DNA of 64,000 nucleotides from Zanthoxylum bungeanum (Eukaryota > Streptophyta > Magnoliopsida > Sapindales > Rutaceae): NCBI GenBank assembly GCA_019454045.1, contig SKCR01018428.1, positions 1 to 64,000 on the forward strand, read 5' to 3'. The notes under the pieces were generated by a model. That model did not search any database and had not been told where the DNA came from. It worked only from the letters and a program-made list of their open reading frames with translations. Numbering within the stretch: the first letter of the stretch is position 1; the number at the start of each line of letters is the position of its first letter. The position numbers and the translations under genes were made by a program. Of the stretch, positions 3,904-49,683 are shown piece after piece.

Positions 3904-3912
3904 ACCGTTTAA

Positions 3913-21156: not shown

Positions 21157-21240
21157 CCTTCTAATATCCATCCGATATACCCTATTCATTCAACACATCC
21201 ATATATTCATTCATAACATGCAATTCAACCAATCTAATCC
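21157..21240 (-). other. Outer Copia leader, duplicated copy 1 (end)
   Basis: This continues the leader after the solo LTR and matches 27126-27215. It stops abruptly at about 21240, where sequence of the integrase region of a Copia pol begins, marking a recombination junction. Confidence 0.75.
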
Positions 21241-22590: not shown

Positions 22591-24858
22591 ATAATGATTA
22601 CAATAGTCCAAATATTTAATCAACTATAATTTAATAGATTAAAATCAATTATATTGATTACTATAATCCAATTATAAAATCCACTATAAATGAATAGTTT
22701 GAATATAGTCCAACTATTTATTAAAAACAACATTTAAATATTAGTCCAACAAACATTTAATTTAATTGACGAATGATATTTGTTTGAGCGCGTATGGCAA
22801 GTAATTAAACGAATATTGCAAATTCAATTCTTGCCTCCCACTATTTTTCGGCGAGCCTCTAACCCTCTTTCGAGTACTCGGGAAACCTTGTTTCCTAGTG
22901 GGCTAGGATCCCATTAAATATCACACAATCTTGACTTTGGCCAAAAAATTGTATGATAATTAACTAGGTAGATCTCTAAGATCAATTGGATCCAATCCAA
23001 TTCCTAGATCCAGTAGGGGGACATCCAAGTCCGCAACATATATCTTATATATGCCAATACATCCAATGTATTACCTAACCTTTTTCCTCTGAATCAACTA
23101 AGCCTTGGCTTTGGCACAACAAACTTAGTGATCCCAGTTAAGCGCGACCCATTGACAATGGAAAGCTTCGTAATCAATGTCGATTGACAAGAAGTGGTCT
23201 TAACTTTGGCCAACAAACCACAACTTGGACAAGACACCAAGATGAAACAAAGCCTTTGTGATTCAAACACATTCTCGACGGACAAAGGCCTTGACTTTGG
23301 CCAACAAGCCAATGCCAGTCTTGGATCTTGAGTGAGAATCACTCAATGGAAGGAAAGACGCTTAATATGATGTGAGGGTTTTTCGCGTGCAAATTGGCAA
23401 CCAATTTATTATCTTTGTTAAGGTCTCATCATCATACACCCTTAAACATGCATTCTAAACACATAATAAAGCGCATATGAATAAATTAATAATGATATGC
23501 GGACGGATACTTTACACATTGATCCTAGATCAAATCTCTATCTTTCTCTCTCCCGCTACCACATGTATTAGTTCTACCCGTTACACTACACTTCTAAAGA
23601 AACCTCATTTGCATTGAGGGGAATATGTGAGAAGAGAATACAAAGAATAAGGAGGTAATAAGGCTGGACACGCAGGTCCAAATATTAAATCAAATTTATT
23701 ACAACAATTTCTAAAATTGTCTCACCCATCTAATATCCATCCGATATACATTATTCTTGCATCGCAACCATGTATTCACATAAGCATGTTATCAATCAAT
23801 CTAATCAAATTAATTAATCTGATAATTAGTGATCATCCAATGTTCAAACAACGATTTGATTTTGCTCGAGTCAAACTCGTTTTGCGAATAAGTACTTAAA
23901 GTACGAATTCTCGAATTAAATTAAACTACATAATTAAATCCAATTCAATTTGTATTTAATTCTAATTCGCTATTTAATTCCAAATTAAATACTACACTTT
24001 ATTAATAAACCTTTTACGACTTAAATTCCAAATTTAATCGTTACGGGTCTCAAAGCCCGATTAACGTCCAACGTTAATTTAATTAAAGTCTACTGGGCTT
24101 TTAATTAATTTCTTAAGGCGTGGACTTTTGGTCAACTCGGGTCAAACCCAATAACCAAAGTCCAATCCGGGAGTTACCCCATAAGCCCAGAATTCAATTT
24201 AGGCCCATTAGGCCCAATTAAATTTTAAAGGTCCATTAGTCGCATTTGGGCTTTATGGATGCGGTTTTGGGCCTAATTGGATCCAACCAATTTTTCCTAA
24301 ACCCAACTTGGTACAACCAAGCCCAATAAGCCCAATTACAACACAACAAGCCCAAATCCAATTTTAAGGCCCAATTCAATTAAATTACAAAATCCAATCC
24401 TAAAGTGTATAGCATTATTAATTACCCAAATTAATATTTCCAAAACATCAAATTAGCCTAATTAATCATGCTTATCATCATTAAATCATGTCCAACACAA
24501 TTTAACAAAAAATCAAACCCATTCATGCTACACAAAGTCTCGGCCAAAGGGGATTTTCATGTCCAATTTTAAACCCAATCCAATTGAATCCAAATCAACA
24601 TTAAATCAACATCCCCAATTGTTTTCAAGCCATCCAATGAATCAAAAAACAAAATTCCAAGACAATTAGGGCACTTCACATTTTCGGCCAACACCAAAAT
24701 TTTGGGCAAATTTGTTCCAAACTAAATTTCAACAAATTGATCCAATCAATTTTCAATTAAAACATATTTAAGCATAATAATTCATCCAATTTCATTAAAA
24801 CATGCTCAAATATAATTTACCCAATTTTAAGCCCTAAATCAATTTCATGCTTTTCCTT
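22591..24858 (-). other. Copia leader of the half-element
   Basis: This non-coding stretch has the same block order as 10191-12444. It contains the motif cluster at 22930-23307 and a GGCCCA/TGGGCC cluster at about 24100-24370. Confidence 0.75.
22930..23307 (-). repeat. Four-copy leader motif cluster, copy C
   Basis: CTTGACTTTGGCCAA-type motifs lie at 22930 (with AAAA in place of ACAA) and 23290. The GGCACAACAA variant is near 23104, and a CTTAACTTTGGCC variant is near 23208. Confidence 0.8.
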
Positions 24859-24871
24859 GCTCATGATACCA
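24859..24871 (-). promoter_or_regulatory. Primer binding site
   Basis: The minus strand reads TGGTATCATGAGC, one base inside the LTR at 24873. The 5' seven and 3' four bases fit tRNA-iMet, with two bases in place of one between them. Confidence 0.82.
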
Positions 24872-24872
24872 T

Positions 24873-26820
24873 TGTTGGAGTTTGCTAAGGTCCCAAGGAT
24901 CAATAAACAAGTATGAAACATAAGTGAATACAACGAGGGAGTTGCGGAATACTCACATCGAGCAGTTGAGCGACGCGCGAGGCAACAAAAATCAGTTTCT
25001 GCTCACTGTCACAGCTCACGACAGTTTCTGTTTTGGTCTCCTCCATTCGGCTTTCATCATCAAGAATTTGAGCTCCAAGCTTCGTCAAATGATTCCCGGC
25101 TCATGGGTGGACTTCCCTATCACCTTCTCATGTCTCTCGGAGTGCTAGCTCTCTTGATTTTTGCCTCAAAAACATCACACTTGCTTCCCTCATTCACGGT
25201 TTTGCAAACCAGAAAACCAGAATGTATTTAGCCCCTTGGACGTGAATGATGAAGAGAGAAGAGAGGAGAGAGTGTTGAAAATGTGTTAAAATTAATTGAT
25301 TTCTAAAATCAATTCAACATATACCAAAACATATAATAATAATATATGTCACTCAAGCTTTCAAAAGCTTTTCAACAACTCCCATCAAGTCACATCTATC
25401 AATCAAGTTGTCAAGTCACATCACTCAAAGTGACATGTGATTCGACGCTTGAATTCGAAATACGAATGCGCTCGCAAACAATCCCGGGCTCGGGTTCGCT
25501 AATTCCAAATTAACGAATTTTCCTTTGCGACGTAATTAAATGATTATGCCTAGCGAAATCACTATTCATGTCGCTAACGAATTAATTCTAAATTAACTCG
25601 TTCGCCCGAATTAAAATCTAATTTTAATTCCGCGTCGAAATCCAATTTCTTTTAATATATCAAATATATTAATTAATCGATTAATTCTAAATTAATCGTT
25701 ATCTCTCTTTAAATGATATTTTATTCCAGATAAAATATCTCCGCAATTAATCCCAGATTAATTAAAAGTGCGAGTCATACGTCATCGGTGAATCTTTGGG
25801 AAGTGACCCATGAGATCCCCAGATATGTTGGCAGTAAATTCGGTCGTCGGACTATCCGAACACGTAAGTATCTCGTACTACGTTTATACCGATTTACAAG
25901 ACAAGGTTGGCTTCTAGCAAAGCGTCATGCCTACCCAATTCTCCAGAAATATCCTTACAGGAATAAATGATCTATATCAGGCGTAGTATACGTAGTATTG
26001 CGTATTTCGATCCAGTATCACATGATCACATGCAAGGCCTAGGGCTGGTAAAGTGTCTGCCCCGTACGAAGCATATATCGGATTACGAGAAACTAATCTC
26101 TTTAATATCGGATAATCATGACCAAGTCATATTATCCCGACGGTTGTAACCTTTTTAGAGAACCAGTTCTGTATCCCTACGCGATCATCATCTCCATATG
26201 ACTGGAGTGACACTTTCGTCTTGACATCACACCCAACACACTACGATTCTCAATATACCCAGCATAGGCGTACACAGAACCTGTTAAAGCCCTGGATGAC
26301 CGCAACCAAAGTATATTGATTTTCGCAAATATTAGCGGTGCAAGTCTAAGGTTAAGACCAAATACACCTACCCTGATTTCAGACTTCCATAGACACAGAT
26401 TCATACTACTAATGGAATTCCGAGGGGGTTTATCCAGAGCGAAGCTGTTTCCCATACCATCGGTAAAACACAACCTCCTATTACACTTGCATGAGTATCC
26501 TATACCCAAATATATGAGAACAATGTCGTTGTGCCCTCACAACGCGCACAAGTGTAATACTAGTCTTTTACGTATTTATCGATGTCCAATCTCGATAATA
26601 CTCTGACTTGGGATATTTAATGATTTATCCTTCATGGACTGATACTGTCTCATATCATTCTCAGTCCAGGAACAAATCATAGGGACCTCCTATCATTTAT
26701 ATATCTAGGTGATCTAATCACAAATGATAAGAGTGCAATCTCTTTGGTCACATAGTTAATTTGTACAACAACACCGTGATCTGTACAAAAAGTGATGTTA
26801 TGGGTCATAATTGTCCAACA
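24873..26820 (-). mobile_element. Copia 5' LTR with PBS, GTTAG on its right
   Basis: The LTR starts TGTTGGAG and ends CCAACA, then GTTAG at 26821-26825. It is the same subfamily as 16131-18159 (about 95% by eye in a 97-base sample). It lacks a block of about 47 bases near 25450 and a smaller one near 25760. It is oriented as the 5' LTR of a minus-strand element whose internal part is 21241-24858. Confidence 0.9.
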
Positions 26821-30081: not shown

Positions 30082-30680
30082 TGATGAGCGGAAAACATAT
30101 CAATATTTACCGTCCCTTTAACTTAATATTTTATTTAGTTTCTCGGGTTTGATGAACGTTTTGATGTGTTTTAGTTTATTTTGCAGATAAAATAATATCG
30201 GATCTCAATGAAATCATTTAGGACGAAATATGGGTCAAATAAGGGCAATTATTGAACTTGATATTTTAATTTTGGAGATTGGAAGCTTGAAAGGGCGTTT
30301 TTGACGAAGTGCAGTTTTGGAAATTCCAGTTTTGCACATTTGTCGTATTTTGGGCATAACCTTTTACTCCGATATCGGATTGAGCTGATTAAAGTTCCAG
30401 ATTAAAGAAGACTCAAGTATCTACAACTTTGAAAGACAAAATAATTTCGAATTCGGAGAATTTCATGCCCGAAATTGATGAACCATCCAGAAGTGTGTTG
30501 TGTGTAATTATTAAAGTCACTTTCAATCATTTTCAAAGCAAAAAAATAAATTAATAAATAAATAATAAAAATTATCAAATCATCACCAAACATGATAAGA
30601 GATTAGTGGAGCAATTAATAATGGATTTGGTGGAGCAATTAGTGGAGCAATTAATAATTGATTTGGTGATGATTTGATGG

Positions 30681-30703
30681 AGGCAAAATTTTGCCTATAA
30701 ATA
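30681..30703 (+). promoter_or_regulatory. Palindrome overlapping a TATA box in the LTR
   Basis: AGGCAAAATTTTGCCT is a perfect palindrome whose last base starts TATAAATA. It is conserved at 38195-38217 in the other LTR. Just upstream (30606-30672) a unit resembling GTGGAGCAATTAATAATGG is repeated in near-tandem. Confidence 0.7.
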
Positions 30704-30819
30704 CCAGTCATTTCATTTGTAAAATTCATACTTTCTTCTAAGGAATTCCTTAAGAATACTAAGAAGATTGTATCTTGTTTGTTTATTTACAGCTTTCAGT
30801 TTCATAATTTTCCACTTTC

Positions 30820-31110
30820 GCACTTTCTTTTCTTTACTTTTCAGTTTTTACTTTCCGCAATTTACTTTTACGCACAGTACTTTTCTTTCTTTAATTTTCA
30901 GTTTTTACTTTTCAGTATTTTACTTTCAACAATTTACTTTTTAGCATTTACTTTTCAGCAATTTACTTTCAGCAATTTACTTTCAGTAATTTACTTTCAG
31001 CATTTAATTTTCAGTATTTAATTTCAGCATTTACTTCAGCATTTACTTTTCAGTATTTACTTTTCAGTATTTAATTTTCAGTATTTAATTTTCAGTATTT
31101 TACTTTATGT
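30820..31110 (+). repeat. Minisatellite tract inside the LTR
   Basis: Short units of the form TTTACTTTTCAGTA, TTTACTTTCAGCAA and similar repeat many times. The corresponding tract in the right LTR (about 38330-38585) has a different number of units. Confidence 0.8.
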
Positions 31111-31889
31111 CTTTTATTTTATTTAAGTTTTTTTACTACCCGTAAATATGTGTTGTAACTAAGCCAGTTATCTGGGGTTGTGATGAAATCCAATATCTCC
31201 GGTTTATAAAGGGTTAGATTATAACTTGGGTAATATAAAGATTTATTTATTGAGTCTTAATCTTAATGCTTTTTCATTAATTGGCCATTAATAAAATTGA
31301 ACTGGGAAATTTAAAATGAACTAGACGTAGGGATTTTAAGTTTAAGACCTTAGACTCAATAGTCCACGATCTTCCTTGAGGATAGATAACCCTTTAATAG
31401 ATTTCCTTACAGGATAGACATATACCTGTCGGGCCGGGGTAGCCATAATTGGAACTTAAACTTAATGAATCCATATAATTTGGTTGACATAGACATATGG
31501 TTCAATTGGGTTAAACTGGTTATTTGTGTCTGACCATCGACAGAGGCTTACACATAATTTAGTGTTCCAGGTTAATAAATCAATATATTACCCAACTTTA
31601 AGATAACCACTTCATCTTTAAAATGATATTGGAAGAAATCACAACCCTAAATAGTTTTTAATATTGAATTTTCTTAAAATCTACTTTCGAACAATTTTAT
31701 TTACCTGTTTTTAAATTTAGAATCGTCACCATTTCAAATCAATCAAACAACTTATTAGATACTAGTAATCATTTGACCTCATAAAATTAATAGATTAGAT
31801 ATTAAGTCCTCATGGGATCGATATTTTTATACTACTTGAACGATACGTGAGCTTGCGTTATACGCGTGTGTAAGCACCGGTCAAGTTTT

Positions 31890-31907
31890 TGGCGCCGTTG
31901 CCGGGGA
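31890..31907 (+). promoter_or_regulatory. Primer binding site, tRNA-Asp type
   Basis: TGGCGCCGTTGCCGGGGA follows the LTR after AGTTTT. This sequence is complementary to plant tRNA-Asp and is the usual PBS of Athila-lineage elements. Confidence 0.92.
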
Positions 31908-32014: not shown

Positions 32015-34717
32015 ATGAGACGAACCAGAAGCTTTGAACTCCGACCGCTTGACCTAGAAATTTAAAGAACCATCAGACATTTGAGAAGGGAAAGGCGAGA
32101 AGGCCAAGAAGCAATCATTAACATGGAACCTGAACCGTTGGAGGTTGCACCACCAATTCCTATTCGAGACAGAACCATTTCGGTGGTTGACAGACTCATT
32201 TCCTGTATTATACTTCCTCCCTTACTAGTAAATGTGTGTGACATCAAAACATGCATTCAGATGATTCAGCAGTCAGTTCAGTTCGGGGGGAATACAATTG
32301 AAGATCTTAATGCCCACATCAGTAACTTCCTGTAAGTTTGCGGTACTTTCAACTATAATAGAGCATCAGAAGAAGCAATGAGACTGCGAGTTTTACCATA
32401 TTCCCTGAAAGACGGAGCTAAAGCTTGGCTACATTCACTACCAGCAGGTTCTATCATAACTTGGAACTCTTTAGCCACCAAGTTTCTTGCAAAGTACTTT
32501 CCACCAGCCAGAACCGGAAAGCTGAGGAATGACATCACATCCTTTGTACAACAAGATTCAGAATCCCTCTGTGAATCTTGGGAAAGGTACAAAGATTTGC
32601 TCCGGAAATGTCCTCACCATGAGATTCTAAAATGGCTTCAAGTCCAAACATTCTATAATGGACTTTCTGGAATAATGAGAACCACAATCGATGCTGCTGC
32701 TGGAGGAGCCTTGATGGCAAAAGGAGAAGATCAGGCCTAAGACCTAATCGAAGAAATGGCCAACAACAATTCCTTGTGGCCAACAGAAATGAGCATGATC
32801 CAAAGAATTGCAGGAATTTATGAAAGTGGAGCCAATACAGCAGTCAACGCCAAGCTATATCAGATATGCAAATTCATGGAGACTCTTACCACTGGATCCA
32901 AGAGTTCACCATATGGAGGAGCACCAGAGTCGAACCAACTTGAAGAGACGGTGAATTATGTCAACAATTTCAACAGACAGGGGAACAATCCATATTCCAA
33001 CACCTACAACCCAGGGTGGAGGAATCATCCCAATTTTTCATGGAGCAACAATTCAGGCCAACAGCAGAACTATCCACCACTTGAATTTCAACAACAGAAC
33101 AAAAGCCAGGAGCAGGCAAATGAACCAAGAATAACAGAAGTGTTGACCCACTTGAAAAAGATAGAAGCAAAACATGACTCTCAAGCAGCAAGATATGATA
33201 CTATGTTTCAATCTCAAGCAGCAAGATATGATGCTATGTTTCAATCCTAATCAGCATTAATTCAAGGTCAATCTGCTTCTATAAAAGCATTGGAGAATCA
33301 AATTGGACAACTGGCAAATGCTCAGAGTTACAGACCGCCAGGTACCCTTCCTAGCAACACAGAGCCAAATCCAAGAAATATTGGGAAGGAGCAATGTCAT
33401 GCCATCATATTAAAAAGTGGTAATGAAATCAACAAAGATGTTGGAGCCAAAACAGCTGTTGAGGAAATTCTAAAAGAAACAAAGCAACAGATGGAGGAAA
33501 AAGAAGCAAAGGAAAAAGAACAAATCATTCCACCTCCACCTTTTCCTCAACGTCTTCAGAAGAACAAATTGGACAAGCAGTTTTCTCGGTTCCTGGAGAT
33601 CTTCAAAAAGATGCATATCAACATTCCATTTGCAGAAGCGTTGGAACAAATGCCCAGCTATGCCAAATTCATGAAAGACATTCTTTCACGAAAATGGAGA
33701 TTGGGAGATTATGAGACAGTAGCATTATCAGAAGAATGAAACGCCATCATTCAGAGAAAACTTGCTCCAAAGTTGAAAGATCCTGGCAGTTTCAATGTTC
33801 CTTACACCATAGGAGAACATGACTTCGGTAAGGCTCTGTGTGATTTAGGTGCTAGTGTTAACTTGATGCCTTTTTCTATTTTCAGGAAATTACAGATTGG
33901 AGAAACAATGCCAACTTCAGTCTCACTATAACTTGCTGATAGAACGCTCGTATTTCCGAGAGGTGTAGTTGAAGATGTGCTGGTCAAGGTTGACAAATTC
34001 ATTTTCCCAGCAGATTTGATTGTCCTTGATATGGAGGAAGACGCAGACGTGCCAATCATCCTCGGGAGACCATTCTTGGCTACAGGTCGAACTATTATTG
34101 ATGTACAAAAAGGAGAACTAACCATGAGGGTACAAGACCAAGAAGTAACATTCAATGTTTTCAAGGCCATGAATTTCCCAGATGATGAAAAGAAGGAGGA
34201 ATATTTCAAACTTGATGTGATACATAATACCGTTCAGAACTCTGATGAAAGAAAAAGTTCTACTGACAAACTTAAAACATGTCAATTGCCTGTGGAGCCT
34301 AAAGATAAAGCGTCTTTTGTACTGAAGAAGCCAATTCTTGTACTACAAGCAACAGAAGAGAAAAAGTTCCACCAGCTCAACGAATTGGAGGAATTTCACA
34401 ATCAGCCTTTTGAGGATGCCAAATTGTACAAAGAAAAGGGCAAGAAAAGACATGATGGGAAGATAGTGCGCATATAACTGAAACCAGGGAAGAAGGTACT
34501 GTTAAACAAATCAAGGGTGAAATTCTTCCCATGGAAGCCAAAATCACGGTGGTCAGGTCCATTTGTGATCACCAAAGTTTTACCAAATAGAGCCGTTGAG
34601 ATACATGATCCTGATGCTAACAAAACTTTCAAGGTTAAAAACAAGCGTGTCAAGCACTACTGGGGAGAATCATTTGAGCGACAAAAAGAAAGTGTTACAC
34701 TTTCAGATCCAGCTTAA
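32015..34717 (+). pseudogene. Athila-like gag-protease fused to integrase C-terminus
   Basis: One reading frame runs from the ATG at 32015 (MRRTRSFEL) to 34717 with seven in-frame stops (32063, 32333, 32738, 33248, 33737, 33929, 34475) and no frameshift. In order it holds a Retrotrans_gag domain (about 32378-32720), a Gln/Asn-rich linker with the repeated QAARYD unit (33180-33240), and an aspartic protease whose active site is CDLGASVNLMP (about 33839-33871). It passes without a break into an integrase C-terminal segment (NELEEFHNQPFEDAKLYKEK, KSRWSGPFVITK). RT, RNase H and the integrase catalytic core are absent. This is a non-autonomous internal-deletion derivative that needs polymerase and integrase in trans. 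Confidence 0.9.
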
Positions 34718-34845
34718 CGTTTGAGAAGTCAAGTCTGGCTGACGACTTTAAACTTAGCGCTAGCATGGAGGCAACCCATGCAATTTTTGTATATATGTGA
34801 TTTTATTTTTGTGTGTTTAATTTTTGCAGGTTTAGTCATTTCACA
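34718..34845 (+). promoter_or_regulatory. Possible 3' splice site before ORF2
   Basis: A T-rich run ends in TTTTTGCAG at 34821-34829, followed by G and then the ORF2 ATG 16 bases later. A similar GTGTTTCAG at 31991-31999 precedes the gag ATG at 32015. Splicing to reach a downstream ORF is plausible but unproven. Confidence 0.4.
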
Positions 34846-35394
34846 ATGGAAGAAGCTCTCGCAAATCTTCATAAGAAATTTCCTTCTCTCCCTCAAAAAT
34901 CTCTGATGAAAGTCTACAAAGCTCGCTTGGAACGGATGAGACTACTGATGATCAAAGGTATTCCTAATGACATTCGTTGGGTAATTGAAGCACGAGTCCG
35001 ATTGGCATGTGAGTCTTCTGACTCTTTTATTTCACATCTGTCTGGTTTTGGAAGAAGCACCTATGCAAAGAAACGTAGAGCTAAACAAATGGGTGTTTGT
35101 TACAAATGTGCACGCTGGAATTGCAATACTCGTTGTCGTTATTTAGGAATGGTGTTTGATAATCGCGAAGATAAAATTAAATTCATTAGGGATGGCTTGA
35201 GTAAGGAGTCTTTAGATGATATATCTTTAACTCTTGAGACGCATCCCAGTGGATATGTTCACATAGCCATTCTCAAATTACATACACAATTCGAAAAAGA
35301 AAGACAACAATTAAGTCTTGGGAATCTGACTCAAAAAGACCCTGTTTGCCAGTTTATAAGAAAATTGGATGGGAAGCTTGTCCCTGACGCATAG
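34846..35394 (+). CDS. Unrecognised 182-residue ORF2 carried by the Athila-like element
   Basis: An intact frame begins at ATG 34846 (MEEALANLHKKFPSL) and ends at 35394. I do not recognise the family. It is basic in its first half (KVYKARLERMRLLM, YAKKRRAKQ) and has a compact Cys cluster C85-x2-C88-x4-C93-x3-C97 that could bind zinc. The rest is mixed alpha/beta-looking and ends in a charged tail. No signal peptide or membrane segment is evident, which argues against an env-like protein although it lies where Athila env-like ORFs are found. It is uninterrupted, unlike the gag-protease frame upstream. It could be another captured host sequence or a lineage-specific accessory protein. Confidence 0.6.
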   Translation: MEEALANLHKKFPSLPQKSLMKVYKARLERMRLLMIKGIPNDIRWVIEARVRLACESSDSFISHLSGFGRSTYAKKRRAKQMGVCYKCARWNCNTRCRYLGMVFDNREDKIKFIRDGLSKESLDDISLTLETHPSGYVHIAILKLHTQFEKERQQLSLGNLTQKDPVCQFIRKLDGKLVPDA

Positions 35395-35621
35395 ACGTCA
35401 ATCAAGCCGTTACTTTTCTTGTAAATATTATATCTCTTTGTCTTTTCTTAATAATTGTGATTTTTTTTGTTGTTTTCTTTTATTTTCTCCGACAGGATCC
35501 AGACCTTTTTTTACTATCACGATTTATTTTACTGTTAACTAATAATCGTCCTTTGGAAGATACTTGTGCTATTATTACTCACCCTTTTTAGGTTTTATAA
35601 ATTCAACTCATCATTTCACTT
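35395..35621 (+). other. Pyrimidine-rich spacer between ORF2 and the LOG-like ORF
   Basis: This non-coding stretch has T-rich tracts ending in CTCCGACAG (35487-35495) and CCCTTTTTAG (35582-35591), both resembling 3' splice sites. The bases just before the LOG-like frame (TCATTTCACTTTTGAAGA, 35611-35628) resemble those around the ORF2 start (TCATTTCACAATGGAAGA, 34836-34853) at 15 of 18 positions. Confidence 0.5.
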
Positions 35622-36278
35622 TTGAAGACATCCAGAGTAAAACATGGAAGCCAAAACATCTGTGTGTTTTGTGGTACTAGTGTTGGTACTAAGCCACAAT
35701 ACGTAGAGGCAGCACATGAATTGGGTCGAGTCTTAGCTACAAGGAATATGCACTTAGTATATGGCGGAGGCAATCTTGGACTAATGGGAATCATTTCAAA
35801 GGCCGTACAGGAAGGAGGCAGTCACGTTTTGGGAATCATCCCAAAACCCTTGGCAGAAGCAAATCTTATTGGACCATCAAACGGAGAAGAGCTAATTGTG
35901 CCAGGTATGTCTGAACGACTGGTAGAAATGATTAATCGAGCTGATGCTTTTATTGCTTTGCTAGGTGGCTTGGGTACATTGGAGGAAATTTTTATTGTGC
36001 TATCTTGGGCGAACCTGAACATACACCAGAAACCAATTGGGTTGTACAACGTTGATGGATTTTATGATTTTCTTTGTGTGTTTCTTGATGATGCCAGGAG
36101 AAATGGGTTCGTGTCAAAACATTTGAAAGAACTCATCTTTACTGCCAGAACTGTTCCGGATCTAATAGACCAACTCATAGCCTATGAACCACGAGTTGAC
36201 CCTATCCTTTCAAAGATAAATTGGCCAGAGGACGATCGTGGTAAGAGGCGTAGGATTAATCTGGATCTTAATCTTTAA
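35622..36278 (+). pseudogene. Captured LOG-like cytokinin riboside 5'-monophosphate phosphoribohydrolase
   Basis: The 218-codon frame matches plant LONELY GUY proteins over essentially full length. LOG removes ribose 5-phosphate from cytokinin nucleotides, giving active cytokinin bases, in cytosol and nucleus. Visible features: ICVFCGTS (13-20); nucleotide-binding YGGGNLGLMG (47-56); LGIIPK (70-75); conserved Arg99; the PGGxGTxxE motif at 114-122, present as LGGLGTLEE with Glu122 kept but Pro replaced by Leu; and KPIGLYNVDGFYD. The Lys usually next to the Arg is Leu100. The C-terminus INLDLNL contains an EAR-like LxLxL pattern of unknown relevance. There are no introns, whereas plant LOG genes have several, so capture through RNA is likely. 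There is no ATG before Met43; the frame opens at a TTG in the expected start region. It lies in sense orientation within the retroelement. Residual activity is uncertain. Confidence 0.85.
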
Positions 36279-37580: not shown

Positions 37581-37595
37581 TTAGGTTTGGGGGTG
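37581..37595 (+). promoter_or_regulatory. Polypurine tract of the Athila-like element
   Basis: TTAGGTTTGGGGGTG directly precedes the right LTR, the standard place for the plus-strand primer. Confidence 0.88.
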
Positions 37596-39360
37596 TGATG
37601 AGCGGAAAATATATCAATATTTACCGCCCCTTTAACTTAATATTTTGTTTAGTTTCTCGGGTTTGATAAATGTTTTGATGTGTTTTAGTTTATTTTGCAG
37701 ATAAAATAATATCGGATCTCAATGAAATCATTTAGGATCAAATATGGGTCAAATAAGGGCAATTATTGGACTTGATATTTTAATTTTGGAGATTGGAAAC
37801 TTGAAAGGGCGTTTTTGACGAAGTGCAGTTTTGGAAATTCCAGTTTTGCACATTTGTCGTATTTTGGACATAACTTCTTACTCCAATATCGGATTGAGCT
37901 GATTAAAGTTCCAGATTAAAGAAGACTCAAATATCTACAACTTTGAAAGACAAAATAATTTCGAAATCTGAGGATTTCATGCCCAAAATTGATGAACCAT
38001 CCAGAAGTGTGTTGTATGTAATTATTAAAGTCACTTTCAATCATTTTCAAAGCAAAAAAATAAATTAATAAATAAATAATAAAAATTATCAAATCATCAC
38101 AAACATGATAAGAGATTAGTGAAGCAATTAATAATGGATTTGGTAGAGCAATTAGTGGAGCAATTAATAATTGATTTGGTGGATGATTTGATGGAGGCAA
38201 AATTTTGCCTATAAATACCAAGTCATTTCATTTGTAAAATTCATACTTTCTTCTAAGGAATTCCTTAAGAATACTAAGAAGATTGTATCTTGTTTGTTTA
38301 TTTACAGCTTTCAGTAATTAATTTCCGCTTTCGCACTTTCTTTTCTTTACTTTTCAGTTTTTACTTTCCGCAATTTACTTTTACGCACAATACTTTTCTT
38401 TCTTTAATTTTCAGTTTTTACTTTTCAGTAATTTACTTTCACAGCAATTTACTTTTCAGCAATTTACTTTCAGCATTTACTTTTCAGTAATTTACTTTCA
38501 GCATTTAATTTTCAGTATTTTACTTTCAGCATTTACTTTTCAGTATTTAATTTTCAGTATTTTATTTTCAGTATTTTACTTTATGTCTTTTATTTTATTT
38601 AAGTTTTTTTTACTACCCGTAAATAAGTGTCGTAACTAAGCCAGTTATCTGGGGTTGTGATGAAATCCAATATCACCGATTTATAAAGGGTTAGATTATA
38701 GCTTGGGTAATATAAAGATTTATTTATTGAGTCTTAATCTTAATGCTTTTTCATTAACTGGCCATTAATAAAATTGAACTGGGAAATTTAAAATGAACTA
38801 GACGTAGGGATTTTAAGTTTAAGACCTTAGACTCAATAGTCCACGATCTTCCTTGAGGATAGATAACCCTTTAATAGATTTCCTTACAGGATAGACATAT
38901 ACCTGTCGGGCGGGGGTAGCCATAACTGGAACTTAAACTTAAAGAATCCAGATAATTTGGTTGACATAGACATATGATTCAATTGGGTTAAACTGGGTAT
39001 TTTTGTCTGACCATCGACAGTGGCTTACACATAATTTAGTGTTCCAGGTTAATAAATCAATATATTATCAAACTTTAAGATAACCACTTCATCTTTAAAA
39101 TGATATTGGAAGAAATCACAACCCTAGATAGTTTTTAATATTGAATTTTCTTAAAATCTACTTTCGAAAAATTTTATTTAATTTTTTTTAAATTTAGAAT
39201 CGTCACCATTTCAAATCAATCAAACAACCTGTTAGATACTAGTAATCATTTGACCTTATAAAATTAATAGATTAGATATTAAGTCCTCGTGGGATCGATA
39301 TTTTTATAATACTTGAACGATACGTGCGCTTGCGTTATACGCGTGTGTAAGCACCGGTCA
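37596..39360 (+). mobile_element. Athila-like Gypsy element, right LTR
   Basis: It begins TGATGAGCGG, ends CACCGGTCA and is 1765 bases long. The palindrome/TATA block is conserved (38195-38217). It is shorter than the left LTR, mainly in the minisatellite tract. Similarity to the left LTR is high by eye, suggesting a moderately young insertion. Confidence 0.93.
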
Positions 39361-39434
39361 AGTTTTTGGCGCCGTTGCCGGGGAATTATTTATCTTTTAC
39401 TATTAGTTTAGGGGTTAGATACGTTACTTGTATC
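39361..39434 (+). mobile_element. Start of a second Athila-like internal region, truncated
   Basis: After the right LTR the sequence repeats AGTTTTTGGCGCCGTTGCC and the following leader seen at 31884-31957, then breaks off after TTGTATC. A right LTR should be followed by target DNA, so this is the remnant of a tandem LTR-internal-LTR-internal arrangement. Confidence 0.85.
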
Positions 39435-41484
39435 ATGGTGTTATTGTACAAATTAACTATGTGACATAAGGAGATTGCTCTCTTATCATTTGTGATTAGA
39501 TCACCAAGATATATAAATGATAGGAGGTCCATATGATTAGTTCCTGGATTGAGAATGATATGAGACAGTATCAGTCCACGAATGATTAATCATTAAATAT
39601 CCCTAGTCAGAGTATTATCGAGATATGACATAGATAAATGCGTAAAAGACTAGTATTACACTTGTGCGTGTTGTGATGGCACAAACAACATAGTTCTCAT
39701 ATATTTAGGTATATGATACTCATGCAAGTGTAATAGAAGGTTGTGTTTTACCGATGGTACGGGAAACAGCTTCGTTCTGGATAGACCCCCTCGGAATTCC
39801 ATTGGTAGTATGACTATGTGTCTATGGAAGTCCGAAATCAGGGTAGGTGTATTTGGTCTTAACCTGAGACTTGCACCGCTAATACTTGCGACAATCAATA
39901 TTCTTTGGTTTTGGTCGTCCAGGTCTTTAACCGGTTTCTGTGTACGCCTCTTCTGGGTATATCGAGAATCGTAGTGTGTTGGATGTGATGTCAAGACGGA
40001 AGTATCACTCCAGTCATATGGAGATGATGGTCACGTAGGATACGGGACTTGTTCTCTTAAATGCTGCAGTTATCGGGATATTATGACTAGGTCATGTATA
40101 TCCGATTATAGAGACTAGTTACCAGACATCCGACATGTGTTTCGTACGGGGCAGACACAATTCCAGCCTCAGGCCTAGCACGTGACATCCGAAACTGGAT
40201 CGACATACACAATACTACGTATACTACACCTGATATAGATCCTTATATTCCTGTAAGGATATTTCTGGAGAATTGGGTAGGCATGGCGCTTTGCTAGAAG
40301 CCAACCTTGTCTTGTAAATCGGTACAAACGTAGTACTAGGTACTTACGTGTTCGGATAGTCCGACGACCGAATTTACTGCCAACATATCCGGGGATCTCA
40401 TGGGTCACTTCCCGAAGATTCACCGATGACGTATGACTCGCACTTTATTAATCTGGGATTAATTAATGATGAGAGAGAAAATTAATTTGGGATTAATTGA
40501 GGAGATATTTTATCTGGGATAAAATATCAATTAAAGAGAGATAACGATTAATTTGGAATTAATCGATAAAATAATATATTTGATATATTATAAGAAATTG
40601 GATTTCGACGCGGAATTAAAATTAGATTTTAATTCGGGCGAACGAATTAATTTAGAATTAATTCATTAGTGACGTGAATAGTAATTATGCTAGGCATGAT
40701 TATTTAATTAAATTAGATTTAATTACGTCGCAACGAAAAATTCGTTAATTTGGAATTAGCGAACCCGAGCCCGGGATTGTTTACGAGCGCATTCGCATTT
40801 CGAATTCGAGTGCGGCATGTAAGTCACATCAAGCATCAAATCATTAGTCACATCAAGCGTCAAATCACATGTCACTTTGAGTGATGTGACAAGTTGTCAC
40901 TTGATTGATTGAAAGATGTGACTTGATGGAAGTGGTTGGAAAGCTTGATTGACATATATTAATATTTTAATAATTGGTATATGTTTAATTGTTTTTGGAA
41001 AACAATTATCTAATACACAACTTCCATTCTCTCTCTATGGTTCATGGTTTTGGAGCCAAAGCCAAAATAACTCTTCTCTCTCTCTCGACCTTGGAGGCCT
41101 TCTTCTTCCCTTCTGTTTCTGGTTTCTACCGAACAATGGAGGAAAAGAAATGGTGGTTTTTGTGGCAAAAATCACCAAGTGCTAGCACACTTTTGAGTCG
41201 TCCGTAGGTGATAGGGAAACCCACCCGTGGGCTTGGAATACCATTCAAGAAGCTTGGAGCTTCAAGGACCATGTAAAAGCCGAATCTTTGGAGATCAAAA
41301 ACTGCACTGCCGATTCTTAGAGAGGCCAAACCAGTCACTGCCGTGAGCTGTAGGAGGGAGAAAGTGAAGTTTTCGTCACCGCATCGTCTCAACCGATCCT
41401 TGTGAGTATTCCACAACTCCGTGATGTATTCGCATGTTTATTTCTTGCTTTGTATTCGATCCTCGGGGCCGTAGAACTCCAACA
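39435..41484 (+). mobile_element. Copia 5' LTR in plus orientation, truncated at its start
   Basis: This is the reverse complement of the Copia LTR family, ending AACTCCAACA at 41484. About 43 bases are missing from its outer end, where it is joined to the Athila-like fragment with ATC shared at the junction. It belongs to the TGTTGGAG subfamily, like 16131-18159 and 24873-26820. Confidence 0.87.
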
Positions 41485-41485
41485 A

Positions 41486-41499
41486 TGGTATCTATGAGC
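41486..41499 (+). promoter_or_regulatory. Primer binding site of the inverted Copia half-element
   Basis: TGGTATCTATGAGC lies one base after the LTR end, the same variant as at 28263-28276. Confidence 0.82.
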
Positions 41500-44050
41500 A
41501 AGGTTGAGCATGAAAATATTTTAGGGTTAAAATTTAGGTAAAATGAATTTGAGCATGATTTAATGAAATTGGATGAATTAATATGCTTAAATGTGTTTTA
41601 ATTGATGATTGATTGGATCAATTTGATGAAAAATTGTTTGGAACATTTTTCCCCAAATTCTTTGGCTTGGTCGAATTGGACATGAACCCTAATTGTCTTG
41701 GATTTTGATTTTTTGATTCATTGGATGTGTTGGAAATCAATTGGGAATGATGATTTAATGTTAATTTAAGATTCAATTGGATTGGATTTGCAATTTGACA
41801 TAAATTCCCCTTTGGCCGAGACTTAATAATCATGTATGGGTTTATTTTTTATTAAATTATGTTGAACATGATTTAATGTTAATAAGCATGATTAATTAGA
41901 CAAATTTGTGTTTTGGAAATATTGATTTGGGTAATTAATTGTGTAATATACTTTAGGTAATTTAATTGAGAAATTTGGAATTTTTGAATTAAATTAGTTG
42001 GGCATAAAATTGGATTTGGGCTTTCAAAGTTGTTATTGGGCTTATTGGGATTGATTGTACTAAGTTGGGTTTAGGCTAAATTGGTTGGATCCAATTGGGC
42101 CCAAAACCACTTCCATAAAGCCCGAATGCGACTATTGGACCTTTAAAGTTTAATTGGGCCTAATGGGCCTAAATTGATTTCTAGGCTTATGGGGTAATTC
42201 CCGGATTGGGCTTTGGTTATTGGGTTTGACCCAAGTTGACCAAAAGTCCACGCCTTAAAGAAATTAATTAAAAGCCCATTGGAATTTAATTAAATTGACG
42301 TTGGACGTTAATCGGGCTTTGAGACCCGTAACGATTAAATTTGGAATTTAAGTCGTAAAGATTCATGAAATAAAGTGTGGTATTTAATTTGGAATTAAAT
42401 AATTGGATTAGTATTAAATACATATTGAATTGGATTTAATTATGTAGTTTAATTTAATTCGAGAATTCGTACTTTGAGTACTTATTCGCAAAACGAGTTT
42501 GACTCGAGCAAAATCAAATTATTGTTTGAACATTGGATGATCACTAATTATCAGATTAATTAATTTGATTAGATTGATTGATAACAAGCTTGTGTGAATA
42601 CATGGTTGCGATGCATGAATAATGTATATCGGATGGATATTAAATGGGTGGGGCAATTTTAGAAATTGTTGTAATAAATTTGGAATTTATTAATTAGACC
42701 TGCGTGTCCAGCCTTATTACCTCCTTATTCTTTGTTTTCTCTTCTCACCTATTCCCCTCAATGTAAATGAGGTTTCTTTAGAAGTGTAGTGTAACGGGTA
42801 GAAGAAATATTTGTGCTAGCAGGAGAGAGGAAATGGAGAGATTTGATCTAGGATCATTGTGTAAAGTATCCATCCGCATATCATTATTATTTATTTATAT
42901 GCGCTTTATTATGTGTTTAGAATGCATATTTAAGGGTGTATGATGATGAGACCTTAACAAAGATAATAATTTGATTGCCAATTTGCACTCGATAAACCCT
43001 CGTAAAATATTAAGCATTTTTCCTTCCATTGAGTGATTCTTACTCAAGATCCGAGACTGGCATTGGCTTGTTGGCCAAAGTCAAGGCCTTTGTCCGTCGA
43101 GGAAGTGTTTGAATCACGAAGGCTTTGTTCAATATCGGTGTCTTGTCCAAGTTGTGGTTTGTTGGCCAAAGTCAAGACCACTTCTTGTCCATCGACATTG
43201 ATTACGAAGCTTTCCATGGTCAATGGGTTGCGCTTAACTGGGATCACTAAGTTTGTTGTGCCAAAGCCAAGGCTTAGTTGATTCATAGGAAAAAGGTTAG
43301 GCAATACATTGGATGTATTGGCATATATAAGATAATATATTTCAGACTTGGAGTCCCCCTACTGGATCTAGGAATTGGATTGGATCCAATTGATCTTAGA
43401 GATCTACCTAGTTAATTATCATACAATTTGTTGGCCAAAGTCAAGATTGTGTGATATTTAACGGGATCCTAGCCCACTAGGAAACACGATTTCCCGAGTA
43501 CTCGACAGAGGGTTAGAGGCTCGCCGAAAAATAGTGGGAGGCAAGAATTGAATTTGCAATATTCGTTTAATTACTTGCCATACGCGCTCAACCAAATATC
43601 ATTCGTCGTCAAATAATATTTAAATTGTTGTTTTAATTAACAGTTGGTCTGTATTCAAACAAATTAAAAGTATAGTTGATTAATATAGTTGGACTATAAT
43701 AATCATTATATTTAAAGTACCTGAAATCGTTGATTAAATAGTTGGACTATTAGAATAAAGATGTAAATTGAAAGATTGACATTTAAAACATAATCCTAGG
43801 GAAAATGTATTTAAATGGTTTAATTTTCAAAATTGGGAATAATTTCAGGATGGTCCTGGAAACTAATAAGTTACTTTATTTGATAAAATAACATATTAGG
43901 CCTAAGCCCAGAGTTAAGCAAATAGTAGAGCATAATCTTTGGAAGATTTATGTGATGATAGCTTTAGTGCTTAATCCATTAAGCTTGTCACAATAGACTC
44001 CTTAATTTATGAATCAGAACTAAGGATTAGATCCTTAAAGTATGATAAAG
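41500..44050 (+). other. Copia leader, plus orientation
   Basis: This is the inverse of the leaders elsewhere. It includes a GGCCCA/TGGGCC cluster (about 42000-42320), the TGTATGATGATGAGACC block (about 42938), and the four-copy motif cluster at 43068-43445. No gene is visible. Confidence 0.75.
43068..43445 (+). repeat. Four-copy leader motif cluster, copy D
   Basis: TTGTTGGCCAAAGTCAAG occurs at 43068, near 43155 and at 43428, with a TTGTTGTGCCAAAGCCAAG variant near 43250. This is the sense-strand form of the motif. Confidence 0.85.
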
Positions 44051-44400
44051 AAATTGAAGGATCTTCATAGATCTATATTTAGATCTTAGAAGTAAAAATT
44101 GTAATTGATAACTCTTGGAGAGTTAATGACTATTCTCAAGGAGATAAAGTCAAAGTTTGCAATAAGGCAAGAAGCGCAAGGCGCACCTTACTTCGATATT
44201 CTAGAAGTCCGAGGCTTGGCCAAAGGCTTCTGGAATATGAAAAGGGCAAAGGCAAAATCATTATAATCTTCTAGGAAGATAAAGAACATATCCCAAAATG
44301 TCTGCTTAAATTGTGGCAAACGGGATCGTGGAAGCGTGACTGCCGTTTGGACAAAGCAGACATGAAGGAATTGAAGACGAGCAAGGCTCCGACTTCAAAT
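44051..44400 (+). pseudogene. Decayed Copia gag fragment, plus orientation
   Basis: This is the inverse homologue of 21899-22250. Traces of the zinc-knuckle region are seen near 44305-44345 but in broken frames. It ends at ATGTTTGTCATATTATG (about 44400), matching the gag/pol joint of the other copies. Confidence 0.6.
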
Positions 44401-45629
44401 ATGTTTGTCATATTATGTTCACTACTAGTATTAAAATTGGATTTTAGATACTTAGTGTGGTACATCAATATGTACTGATGTTCAGAATCTGCTATGAGTA
44501 GGATACTGACTTCAGATTGAGTTTTATCTGCGAATTGGAAAGGGGACGAAAGTCACTGTTTTTAACCGTAGATACCTAAGTTTAGGAACTACCTTCGGGT
44601 GTGTACTTAAATTAGGAAACTGTTATAATGTAACTAGTTTGACTAGAAACATTATCTCTATATCAGTGTTTAACCCGATGCGGGTGAACCTTTATATTCT
44701 AGAATACTAAATTGTTTCATTATATAAAGATGATATTGAGATAAACACATTAGATGTGAATAACAGCATTTATATTTTGAATATAAATAAATCTCAAACG
44801 TATAACATGACAAACAAATAGCTCAAACTGATTTGATCATAAGAAACTCAATTATGGCATTGTTGTCTGGGACACAACTAAATCAAGAATCGTATATCCA
44901 CACTTTTGAAGAGTGGGTACTTGGACTGATTTGATTCCATTCAAATAAAGTCTACGAATCTAGTTTATTGGGCAAAGTGCCTAAAACACATTTACTCGGT
45001 AAAAGTGCAAATGCCACCGATCTGTAAGCCCTAGTTCATAGTGAAGCAAGTGGGCCCATTTCTAGCTAGGCTAGAGGTGGATATGAATATTTCGTGACCT
45101 TTACGGATGTGGCATCGCGTTGTGGTTATGTGTTTCTTTTGAAACATAAATCGGAAACTTTTTCAGTTTCGACACAAAATACACAAACAGATCGGCTAAA
45201 GTATTAAACCGTCACAGTAAGACCGTAATGGAAAATACTTAAGCAATAAGTTTCTAATATACTTGAAAGAGTATAGTATTCTTTCAATGAGGACTCCTCC
45301 CGGAACACGTCAATTTGACGGTGTGTCCGAACTGAGATAAACCGAATTATGTTAGACATGATAAGGCTAATCATGAGTCGCTCTGAGCTACCATTTCCTT
45401 CAACAGATACACTTTAACAGTGAAAGAACTTATTTTGAATAAGGTTCCATAAAAATCTGTTTGACAGGCTTCATATTAGATATGAAAAGGAAAGAAACCG
45501 GGTTTCTCATTCCTGAACATTTGGGTATGCTAGGCATATGTTTGAATGATACCAAACTAAAACCCAAATTGGATAAGTGCCAATTGTAGGTTATCCTAGG
45601 GATACCAAAGTATAGTACTTATACATCTC
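44401..45629 (+). pseudogene. Decayed Copia pol fragment (protease to integrase), plus orientation
   Basis: It is homologous to the inverse of 8200-9424 and runs from protease into the integrase C-terminal part. A recognisable integrase stretch (ARGGYEYFVTF, then SRCGYVFL) is encoded near 45070-45140, among stops. It breaks off at about 45629 where leader sequence in the opposite orientation begins. Confidence 0.72.
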
Positions 45630-48855: not shown

Positions 48856-49683
48856 ACATCCTATATGGCTGGTTGGTAATATCATTGATAAATTCTATAT
48901 TATAGTAAGGGAGATTTCTAAATTAGAAATAGTAAAGGTGGATCCCTAACCCCCAGCATTTTATTTTTATTCTATGGAAGTGATGAAACACAATATCCAC
49001 ACATTTAATAATTGATTTTCTTTTTATGGTCAATTCTTTAGTTTGTTTATTGAGTCTTAAGCTTAATGTTTCTTGTTAATTGGCCATTAATAAGATTGAT
49101 TTGGTAAACATAAAATGAACTTGACGAAGGGATTTTAGGTTTCAGCCTTAGATTCAATAGCCCACGATCTTCCTTGAGGATAGATAACCCTTTAATAGAT
49201 TTCCTTACAGGATAGACATTTACCTGTCGGACGGGGGTAGCCACTTTTGGAACTTGAACTTAATGAATTTAGGTAATTTGGTTAACATAGACATATGATT
49301 AATTGGGTTATTTGGGTATTTGTGTCTGACCATCGACAAAGGCTTTTGCATATCTTCGTGTTCCAGGTTAGCAAACTGACTTATTACACATATATAAGAG
49401 AATCAATTCATCTTTAGGATAATATTGTGTGGAATCACAACCCTAGATCCTTGTGTCTTTTATTTATTTTTCTTAGTATCTTCTTTTGTTTATTTTATTT
49501 AAGCAAATCCACATTCAACCAACCAAAAACAATCATTCTTTTCTCCCTTAATTAGATACTTGTAAATAAATAGTATCAATAATTAATAACAACAATAGGA
49601 ATTAAGTCCTCATGGGATCGATATTTTTATACTACTTGAACGATACATGCGCTTGCGTTATAAGCGTGTGATTACGCTGGTCA
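48856..49683 (+). mobile_element. Athila-like LTR remnant
   Basis: From about 48980 this aligns with the second half of the Athila-like LTRs, for example the block with GATAGATAACCCTTTAATAG and the final GATCGATATTTTTATACTAC. It ends at GGTCA exactly where those LTRs end, but is followed by Tat-type coding sequence. The first 100 or so bases are not assigned. It is more diverged than the LTR pair at 30082/37596. Confidence 0.75.

What the first reader, a model, noticed from the sequence alone, without database searches (positions are those of the whole stretch)
35622..36278. A plant retrotransposon carrying an intron-free LOG (cytokinin activation) gene
The sequence shows a 218-codon LOG-like frame between the integrase remnant and the polypurine tract of an Athila-like element, flanked on both sides by that element's LTRs and in its sense orientation. 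LOG proteins are established as cytokinin riboside 5'-monophosphate phosphoribohydrolases and their genes normally contain several introns. Capture through an RNA intermediate and spread with the element is inferred. If copies are transcribed from the LTR they could add, or through sense/antisense RNA reduce, LOG dosage.
Basis: partly seen in the sequence, partly recalled or inferred. Interest (0 to 1): 0.92.

Follow-up and report, generated by a model that had tools for sequence, protein, structure and literature searches.

The report
Ancient LOG gene inside plant retrotransposons
A large family of plant jumping genes (LTR retrotransposons) carries an intron-free relative of LOG, a plant hormone-activating gene; the gene was likely captured long ago, its variation shows selection for its protein sequence as the elements spread, and three replaced pocket residues suggest that it may now act on a nucleotide other than the hormone precursor.

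Summary
The LOG frame at 35622-36278 is real and not an isolated pseudogene. It lies in an Athila-like LTR element (LTRs 30082-31883, 37596-39360). The host genome holds at least 297 places with near full-length intron-free LOG matches; 19 of 20 copies read at 10 kb have the element's LTR beside them in matching orientation, 11 on both sides. Host LOG genes are split by introns, so a spliced-RNA origin is likely; but element LOGs are about 45% identical to plant LOGs and group with Populus, Xanthoceras, Paulownia and Reevesia proteins outside the plant LOGs sampled: capture looks old. In copies chosen by flanking DNA, rare variants look neutral, while variants shared by six or more copies show N/S 0.22 of expectation (0.23 without near-duplicates). 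A zinc-finger frame with a carlavirus-type match precedes LOG. Catalytic Arg99 and Glu122 are kept, but three base/prenyl-pocket residues are replaced in most element-type LOGs, so cytokinin activation is uncertain. The window copy is decayed. LOG-type (YgdH) domains were reported in Citrus and Populus Gypsy elements; in my searches I saw no report of the selection, partner frame or pocket change.

The parts
30082..31883 (+). 5' LTR of the element (TGATGAG...GGTCA)
   Evidence: self-alignment with the copy at 37596; ends set by the AGTGC duplication of copy L021; LTR pair K2P 0.040
31890..31907 (+). primer binding site TGGCGCCGTTGCCGGGGA (Athila type by recall; PMC1142308 reports a tRNA-Asp PBS 5 bp beyond the LTR for this lineage)
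   Evidence: sequence; passages of PMC1142308
32336..33739 (+). gag pieces (three frames, broken)
   Evidence: 32378-32740 Pfam Retrotrans_gag E 8.8e-21; frames; the other two frames have no Pfam match
33740..34477 (+). protease remnant and pol-deletion junction (about 34245-34274), running into integrase C-terminal sequence
   Evidence: RVP_2 E 0.0024, below cut-off; four long copies hold about 2.6 kb with RT, RNase H and integrase pieces at this point (Pfam on L026 only)
34478..34717 (+). remnant of the integrase C-terminal part
   Evidence: aligned next to the integrase of the long copies; no Pfam match of its own
34829..34829 (+). candidate splice acceptor 17 nt before the zinc-finger frame
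   Evidence: TTTTTGCAG|G, AG kept in 18 of 19 copies, but the site is no better conserved than its surroundings (0.82 vs 0.83); splicing not tested
34846..35394 (+). zinc-finger accessory frame, 182 aa (matches carlavirus nucleic-acid-binding protein profiles)
   Evidence: Pfam Carla_C4 28.1 bits (cut-off 20.9), Viral_NABP 27.3 (cut-off 23); 258 relatives
35495..35495 (+). candidate splice acceptor before LOG
   Evidence: TTTTCTCCGACAG|G, AG kept in 17 of 19 copies, site conservation 0.95 vs mean 0.81; no ATG between it and 35644; a second acceptor-like site at 35591 (AG in 18 of 19); splicing not tested
35622..36278 (+). LOG frame of the finding; this copy lacks an in-frame start at the usual place
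37583..37595 (+). polypurine tract before the 3' LTR
   Evidence: sequence AGGTTTGGGGGTG
37596..39360 (+). 3' LTR
39361..39434 (+). second PBS and start of a further internal region, cut off at 39434

Best explanation
This is an accessory gene of an Athila-like LTR retrotransposon family that likely descends from a plant LOG gene captured long ago through spliced RNA, has been under purifying selection while elements replicated, and is predicted to act as a nucleotide-phosphate-cleaving enzyme whose base pocket has changed. Shown: hundreds of intron-free copies in the host genome, beside the element's LTR in 19 of 20 copies read; grouping with proteins of other eudicots; near-neutral rare variants but constrained shared variants; kept phosphate site and catalytic pair, replaced pocket residues. 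Inferred: late expression of the zinc-finger protein and LOG from spliced element RNA, and LOG cleaving a modified nucleotide 5'-monophosphate in the cell that expresses the element, so that this cell becomes a better place to replicate. In the few relatives that keep the full pocket the product would be cytokinin; in the main group, this window's lineage included, more likely another base.
For: 150 of 150 scored hits are near full-length LOG matches at 90-95% identity (the window itself 100), 136 of 150 stop-free (chosen by LOG score from 69,408 loose candidates); 150 more with another query, 134 stop-free, 3 places shared. Of 20 copies read at 10 kb, 19 have the LTR in matching orientation on at least one side and 11 on both; 15 of 20 have the zinc-finger frame, 4 of 20 RT/integrase pieces. 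Of 38 copies chosen by 3'-flank DNA, 38 keep some LOG sequence, 34 most of it and 6 an intact 217-aa frame. N/S against neutral expectation in 35 copies (these 34 and the window): variants in 1-2 copies 0.98, 3-5 copies 0.44 (P 0.0015), 6+ copies 0.22 (0 of 2000 resamplings); shifted frames 0.85-1.08, 1.53-1.98, 1.15-4.18. Without three near-identical copies: 0.91, 1.26, 0.32, 0.23 for 1, 2, 3-5, 6+. L042 or L089 against L014/L020: dN/dS 0.12-0.16 at dS 1.4-2.0; L042 against L089 0.21 at dS 1.0. Divergent lineage L042 also has the zinc-finger frame before LOG. Tree: 37 element-type rows one clade, 99/95. Arg99 92 of 97, Glu122 95 of 97; His97, Lys100, Glu125 replaced in 82, 90, 90 of 97, kept in 119 of 119 plant rows; roles of these residues from passages of PMC4979012.
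Against: No enzyme or expression data. Five of 97 element-type proteins have Gln at Arg99, as does copy L089 (translation), so part of the group may not catalyse. Pocket positions 97, 100 and 125 are more variable than 78, 70 and 86% of columns in the 90 pocket-changed proteins, which fits relaxed constraint there as well as a new substrate. The 37 tree rows were taken from the 120 proteins most like the window's, and 17 of 22 plant rows from those most like one host LOG, so intermediates may be missing and the two outgroup branches are long. Whether the non-host relatives are intron-free and lie in elements was not read. dS between lineages is near saturation and rests on two broken copies. 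N/S tests treat variants as independent; shifted frames are not fully neutral controls. In the zinc-finger frame the 6+ class was not significant (0.69, P 0.31, 22 variants).
Confidence: 0.6

Rival explanations
1. The element LOG is still a cytokinin-activating enzyme: it would raise free cytokinin in cells where the element is expressed and push them to divide, and the zinc-finger protein, like carlavirus p12, would help by changing host gene expression or silencing.
For: Arg99 plus the full PGGxGTxxE motif in 77 of 97; 44 of 54 LOG-invariant columns kept in at least 85% of the 90 pocket-changed proteins; 7 of 97 keep the whole pocket. Carlavirus p12 is described as a weak silencing suppressor and transcription factor that induces hyperplasia (passages of PMC12172455).
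Against: His97, Lys100 and Glu125, assigned to the adenine/prenyl pocket in PMC4979012, are replaced in 82, 90 and 90 of 97, the window's lineage included. Alanine changes of AMP-contact residues there nearly abolished activity, with one exception, Ser19 (the passages I saw do not list Lys100 by name among the mutants). NCBIfam's cytokinin equivalog model does not help: window 111 bits, pocket-keeping P0105 128 bits, cut-off 300.
Confidence: 0.25
2. LOG is a passenger: an inert processed insertion copied along with the element.
For: Most single copies are broken (32 of 38 flank-chosen; 9 of 9 of the short form), and the window copy is decayed.
Against: Shared-variant N/S 0.22 against 1.15 and 4.18 in shifted frames for the 6+ class, 0.23 after removing near-duplicates; lineage dN/dS 0.12-0.21. 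A gag piece gave 0.19 in the 6+ class and 0.09 in the 3-5 class.
Confidence: 0.04
3. The LOG frame became a non-catalytic nucleotide-binding protein (a sponge or sensor of nucleotide signals, as SLOG domains are in some bacterial defence systems).
For: Gln at Arg99 in 5 of 97 and in L089. SLOG domains that respond to cyclic ADP-ribose isomers: abstract of PMC11204291 in a search listing.
Against: Arg99 and Glu122 are kept in 92 and 95 of 97, which a pure binder would not need.
Confidence: 0.2
4. Several independent captures of LOG in different plants rather than one old capture.
For: 15 of 58 inner branches are open; rows were sampled by likeness to the window, so other element LOGs could have been missed.
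Against: All 37 element-type rows fall in one clade, 99/95, none among the 22 plant rows; zinc-finger relatives occur in Xanthoceras and Populus too.
Confidence: 0.15

Closest known systems
Ty3/Gypsy elements with a YgdH (LOG-type) domain in Citrus and, with a relaxed filter, Populus trichocarpa (Alvarado-Marchena et al. 2022, PMC9289625, citing Steinbauerova et al. 2011, not held)
   Same: LOG-type domain in plant Ty3/Gypsy elements; their element library was built around the RT domain
   Different: Section 12 and the passages I saw record the domain and name LONELY GUY, without origin, selection, partner frame or active site. Here copies, selection, tree and pocket are examined in another genome.
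Orchid Gypsy elements with an AlkB-type m6A demethylase (PMC9289625)
   Same: Host-type enzyme kept as an extra frame and shared by subfamilies
   Different: Found only in Phalaenopsis there, with in vitro activity shown; the LOG frame appears more widespread and is untested
Athila/Calypso/Diaspora lineage (PMC1142308, passages)
   Same: PBS a few bp after the LTR, Gypsy pol order, room for an extra region between pol and 3' LTR; element Tpb1-1 is said to hold 'an apparent retrogene' there
   Different: Extra frame in Athila/Calypso is env-like; here a zinc-finger frame and LOG. The Tpb1-1 region has no extended ORF and is not shown to be LOG.
Carlavirus cysteine-rich nucleic-acid-binding protein (CVB p12, SPCFV NaBP)
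   Same: Pfam Carla_C4/Viral_NABP matches above cut-off, basic stretch before a cysteine cluster
   Different: Carla_C4 aligns over only 37 residues of 197; no functional test, structure model poor
Plant LOG and bacterial LOG/YgdH (PpnN) phosphoribohydrolases
   Same: Family profiles, phosphate site, catalytic Arg/Glu
   Different: Intron-free, element-borne, three pocket residues changed in most element-type proteins

Membership tests
LOG family (TIGR00730/PF03641) | family profile above curated cut-off | tested here: met
   PF03641 119.6 bits vs 27; TIGR00730 168.9 vs 96.35
LOG family (TIGR00730/PF03641) | PGGxGTxxE motif and catalytic Arg in the element-type family | tested here: met
   77 of 97 element-type proteins have both in full; the decayed window copy has L for the first P but keeps Arg99 and Glu122
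Cytokinin riboside monophosphate phosphoribohydrolase | adenine/prenyl pocket Met96, His97, Lys100, Glu125, Trp129 | tested here: not met
   window M, S, L, I, W; all five kept in only 7 of 97
Cytokinin riboside monophosphate phosphoribohydrolase | release of cytokinin from riboside monophosphates | not testable with these tools
   needs an enzyme assay
Ty3/Gypsy LTR retrotransposon | LTRs, PBS, PPT, gag, RT-RNase H-integrase order, target duplication | tested here: met
   window has LTRs, PBS, PPT, gag; pol pieces in 4 of 20 copies, order read in L026; AGTGC duplication in L021
Athila lineage | place in an RT phylogeny | not tested
   assignment rests on the PBS and the look of integrase, recalled; no RT tree was made
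Athila lineage | env-like frame after pol | tested here: not met
   the frames after pol are a zinc-finger frame and LOG; Diaspora of the same lineage also lacks env (passages of PMC1142308)
Carlavirus NABP | Pfam profile above cut-off | tested here: met
   window, P0136 and P0154 above both cut-offs, P0193 just below both
Carlavirus NABP | same fold | tested here: inconclusive
   model of mean pLDDT 64, pTM 0.29; no fold search made

The most novel reading that the evidence does not exclude
A retrotransposon has turned a plant hormone-activating enzyme into its own new enzyme: after capture, the base/prenyl pocket of LOG changed at three sites while the catalytic pair stayed, and the protein now cleaves a different nucleotide (a nucleotide signal of plant immunity, or a damaged nucleotide as retroviral dUTPase removes dUTP), giving elements that carry it an edge in copying across eudicots.
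Probability: 0.3. Interest if true: 0.9.

Novelty: new variant of a known kind. Interest (0 to 1): 0.74.

Why it matters
Host genes caught by retrotransposons are mostly thought of as fragments that decay (recalled). Here a whole host-type enzyme has apparently been an element gene long enough to be shared by plants of several orders (orders recalled), and its shared variants are constrained about as much as those of a gag piece in the most-shared class. That makes a direct question testable: what does a plant retroelement gain from a nucleotide-cleaving enzyme and a virus-like zinc-finger protein? It also warns annotators: Populus proteins named LOGL10 that group with the element LOGs (P0044) are probably element genes, which would inflate LOG family counts.

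Tried and rejected
Rejected: unique processed pseudogene; inert passenger; recent capture from a living host LOG gene. Relatives in IMG/VR: scans with LOG and with a zinc-finger protein confirmed none. Zinc-finger structure model too poor to search with. A contig-length coincidence (LOG P0094 and zinc-finger P0149, both with a longest JGI contig of 4511 bases) hints at pairing outside this host but was not verified. The host was not identified; its LOG1-like protein is 92-94% identical to Dipteronia and Shorea proteins. Of the paper searches, those on LOG in retrotransposons gave only PMC9289625; PMC7264820 and PMC11963269 were searched by word and hold no YgdH. A search for retrotransposons with carlavirus-type proteins listed no paper with both (8 of 116 listed). 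Steinbauerova 2011 and Lukhovitskaya 2013 are not held.

Rows dropped before counts: L056, L063, L080 (only the last 95-99 bases of LOG) and L081 (208 bases) from the variant tests; L034, L042, L043, L044 as not flank-chosen; L089 left out of the repeat for the short form; three near-identical copies (L059, L078, L082) in the repeat; element-type proteins outside 200-240 aa left out of the 97. The LOG-score-chosen sample gave 0.37 for singletons, as biased choice would.

Full report
Observation. The frame at 35622-36278 is a LOG-family protein (PF03641 119.6 bits; AtLOG3 E 4.7e-58). The surrounding element has LTRs 30082-31883 and 37596-39360, a primer site at 31890, broken gag, protease and integrase remnants, a 182-aa zinc-finger frame 34846-35391 and a polypurine tract before the 3' LTR. 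The window copy is decayed: its LOG lacks 19 bases near the start relative to copy L020, so that the first in-frame ATG leaves 176 codons, and its motif reads LGGLGT. LTR divergence is 0.040 (K2P), about 1.5 million years at 1.3e-8 per site per year, a grass rate that I recall and that may not apply.

Copies. A protein search of the window's own 3.96-Gb assembly scored 150 of 69,408 loose candidates; all 150 are near full-length LOG matches, 90-95% identical apart from the window itself, 136 without a stop. A second search with the Xanthoceras protein P0105 scored 150 of 62,227, all near full-length, 54-59% identical, 134 without a stop, of which I count 3 shared with the first list: at least 297 places. 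Both lists are picked by LOG score and favour intact frames; some places may be two haplotypes of one. Twenty copies, the window's among them, were read at about 10 kb: 19 have the LTR in matching orientation beside LOG, 11 on both sides within the piece; L019 shows only an inverted LTR match. Four of 20 (L012, L015, L019, L026) hold RT, RNase H and integrase pieces, the other 16 gave no hit (Pfam on L026); 15 of 20 have the zinc-finger frame. The remaining 5 (L014, L016, L023, L024, L025) match from just before LOG to the 3' LTR but have no match to the gag piece, RT pieces or zinc-finger frame; a frame of up to 280 aa with a zinc knuckle by eye lies upstream in L014. A DNA search with that upstream stretch scored 40 of 8,204 candidates at 94-100%, so this short form is itself numerous; 9 of 9 of its copies that I sampled carry LOG about 1.1 kb downstream, none intact. 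One of them, L089, has the body of this form but a LOG of another lineage (64% aa to P0002; 89% to P0011): LOG appears to move between element lineages.

Origin. Of 27 host sites with the GGYGTLEE motif I read 18: 14 are host LOG genes split into exons, with joints, where covered, near AtLOG3-fragment positions 32, 64, 74, 108, 132 and 179; 4 are element copies without introns. The element frame lacks all these introns, as expected of a spliced-RNA origin, which remains an inference. It is about 45% identical to plant LOGs. Against 5.8 billion proteins, 3,965 relatives were found among 4,439 candidates (120 listed), the named ones listed coming from Xanthoceras, Populus, Reevesia and Paulownia. 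In a tree of 61 rows, the 37 element-type rows (36 relatives and the window) form one clade (99/95) beside 22 plant LOG rows (93/95), with two bacterial outgroups on long branches. The relatives were drawn from the 120 proteins most like the window's and 17 of the 22 plant rows from those most like one host LOG, so intermediates could be missing; one old capture is the simplest reading, its depth is uncertain. I did not read the DNA of the non-host relatives; that LOG-type domains sit in Gypsy elements elsewhere rests on PMC9289625 (section 12 read; Citrus, and Populus with a relaxed filter).

Selection. To avoid choosing copies by LOG, I took 38 copies by the 611 bases after LOG (40 of 4,585 scored; the window and one copy at a contig end were not fetched). 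All 38 keep some LOG sequence; in L056, L063 and L080 only the last 95-99 bases and in L081 208 bases match, the other 34 align over most of the frame; 6 of 38 have the whole 217-aa frame. With a real copy (L020) as reference and the neutral expectation drawn from the same mutation types in CG/CHG/CHH context, N/S relative to expectation for 35 copies (34 plus the window) was 0.98 for variants in 1-2 copies, 0.44 in 3-5 (P 0.0015) and 0.22 in 6 or more (0 of 2000 resamplings); shifted frames gave 0.85-1.08, 1.53-1.98 and 1.15-4.18. Split finer, singletons gave 0.87 and doubletons 1.36. Three pairs of copies are under 1% apart; without one of each, singletons, doubletons, 3-5 and 6+ gave 0.91, 1.26, 0.32 and 0.23. 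With 8 copies of the short form added: 0.84, 1.40, 0.41, 0.26. In the short form alone (8 copies against L014) singletons gave 0.45 and shared variants 0.46, so rare variants there are not neutral, perhaps because with few copies inherited variants look rare. A gag piece gave 0.85, 0.09 and 0.19 (14 copies) and the zinc-finger frame 0.69 (P 0.09), 0.34 (P 0.0085) and 0.69 (P 0.31; 15 copies) for 1-2, 3-5 and 6+ (copies chosen by LOG score): evidence for the zinc-finger frame is weaker. Between lineages, L042 or L089 against L014 or L020 gives dN/dS 0.12-0.16 at dS 1.4-2.0, and L042 against L089 0.21 at dS 1.0. Variants are not independent across related copies, and shifted frames inherit the constraint of the real one, so the P values are guides only.

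Second frame. The zinc-finger protein has 258 relatives among 310 candidates (120 listed), the named ones from Xanthoceras, Populus, Acer, Rhamnella and Orobanche, typically 182 aa; in 40 aligned rows finger cysteines 85, 88 and 93 are invariant and 97 nearly so. The Pfam match to carlavirus nucleic-acid-binding proteins is modest. In divergent lineage L042 it also precedes LOG (73% aa). In carlaviruses such proteins are described as silencing suppressors and, for CVB p12, as a transcription factor that induces hyperplasia (passages of PMC12172455). Acceptor-like sites precede both frames: 34829 (AG kept in 18 of 19, not better conserved than its surroundings) and 35495 (17 of 19, site conservation 0.95 against a mean of 0.81), with a further one at 35591; no ATG lies between 35495 and LOG's ATG, and in the 9 copies in which my pattern found both site and start, 0 ATGs lie in the 140-168 nt between. 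Splicing itself is untested.

Active site. By passages of PMC4979012, Arg99 and Glu122 of Corynebacterium LOG are the proposed catalytic pair, Met96, Lys100 and Glu121 hold adenine, and Met96, His97, Lys100, Glu125 and Trp129 form the proposed prenyl site. The window frame happens to share this numbering. Among 97 element-type proteins of 200-240 aa: Arg99 92, Glu121 95, Glu122 95, Trp129 96, Met96 85; but His97 15, Lys100 7, Glu125 7. All eight are invariant in 119 plant rows and both bacteria. Seven proteins (P0036, P0037, P0041, P0056, P0081, P0105, P0115) keep the whole pocket; the five of them in the tree branch early in the element clade, so a joint change on one branch is the simplest reading, though those seven are not shown to lie in elements. 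Of 54 columns invariant in plant and bacterial LOGs, 44 are kept in at least 85% of the 90 pocket-changed proteins and 9 are lost in most, three of these in the pocket. Five of 97 have Gln for Arg99.

Conclusion. It looks older, wider and better kept than proposed, and its chemistry is less certain than its name. Whether it makes cytokinin is open; that selection on replicating elements keeps its protein is well supported within this genome.

Noticed in passing
39361-39434: A second primer binding site and start of an internal region follow the 3' LTR, then unrelated sequence begins: remains of a tandem or recombined element.
   Followed up: partly
L089:130-777: A copy with the body of the short form but LOG of another lineage (64% aa): LOG seems to be exchanged between element lineages.
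   Followed up: partly
L014:4378-5217: Frame of up to 280 aa with a zinc knuckle by eye in the short LOG-carrying form; not identified.
   Followed up: no
L019:7185-8038: An inverted piece of the element's LTR directly follows the internal region of this LOG copy: rearranged or nested copy.
   Followed up: no
2968-4818 (-): Copia-type remnant: integrase core, gag pre-integrase, RVT_2 pieces.
   Followed up: no
21239-26780 and 39432-45053: Inverted pair of related repeats at 85% over 5.75 kb; one of them abuts the LOG element at 39434.
   Followed up: no
49042-49670: Fragment 78% identical to the LTR of this element, an older relative.
   Followed up: no
55720-57192 and 62527-64000: Direct repeat of 1.47 kb at 93%, a possible LTR pair of another element, running off the window.
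   Followed up: no
one search list: Populus proteins named LOGL10 are among the element-type proteins (P0044 in the tree), so LOG family counts in databases may include element genes.
   Followed up: partly
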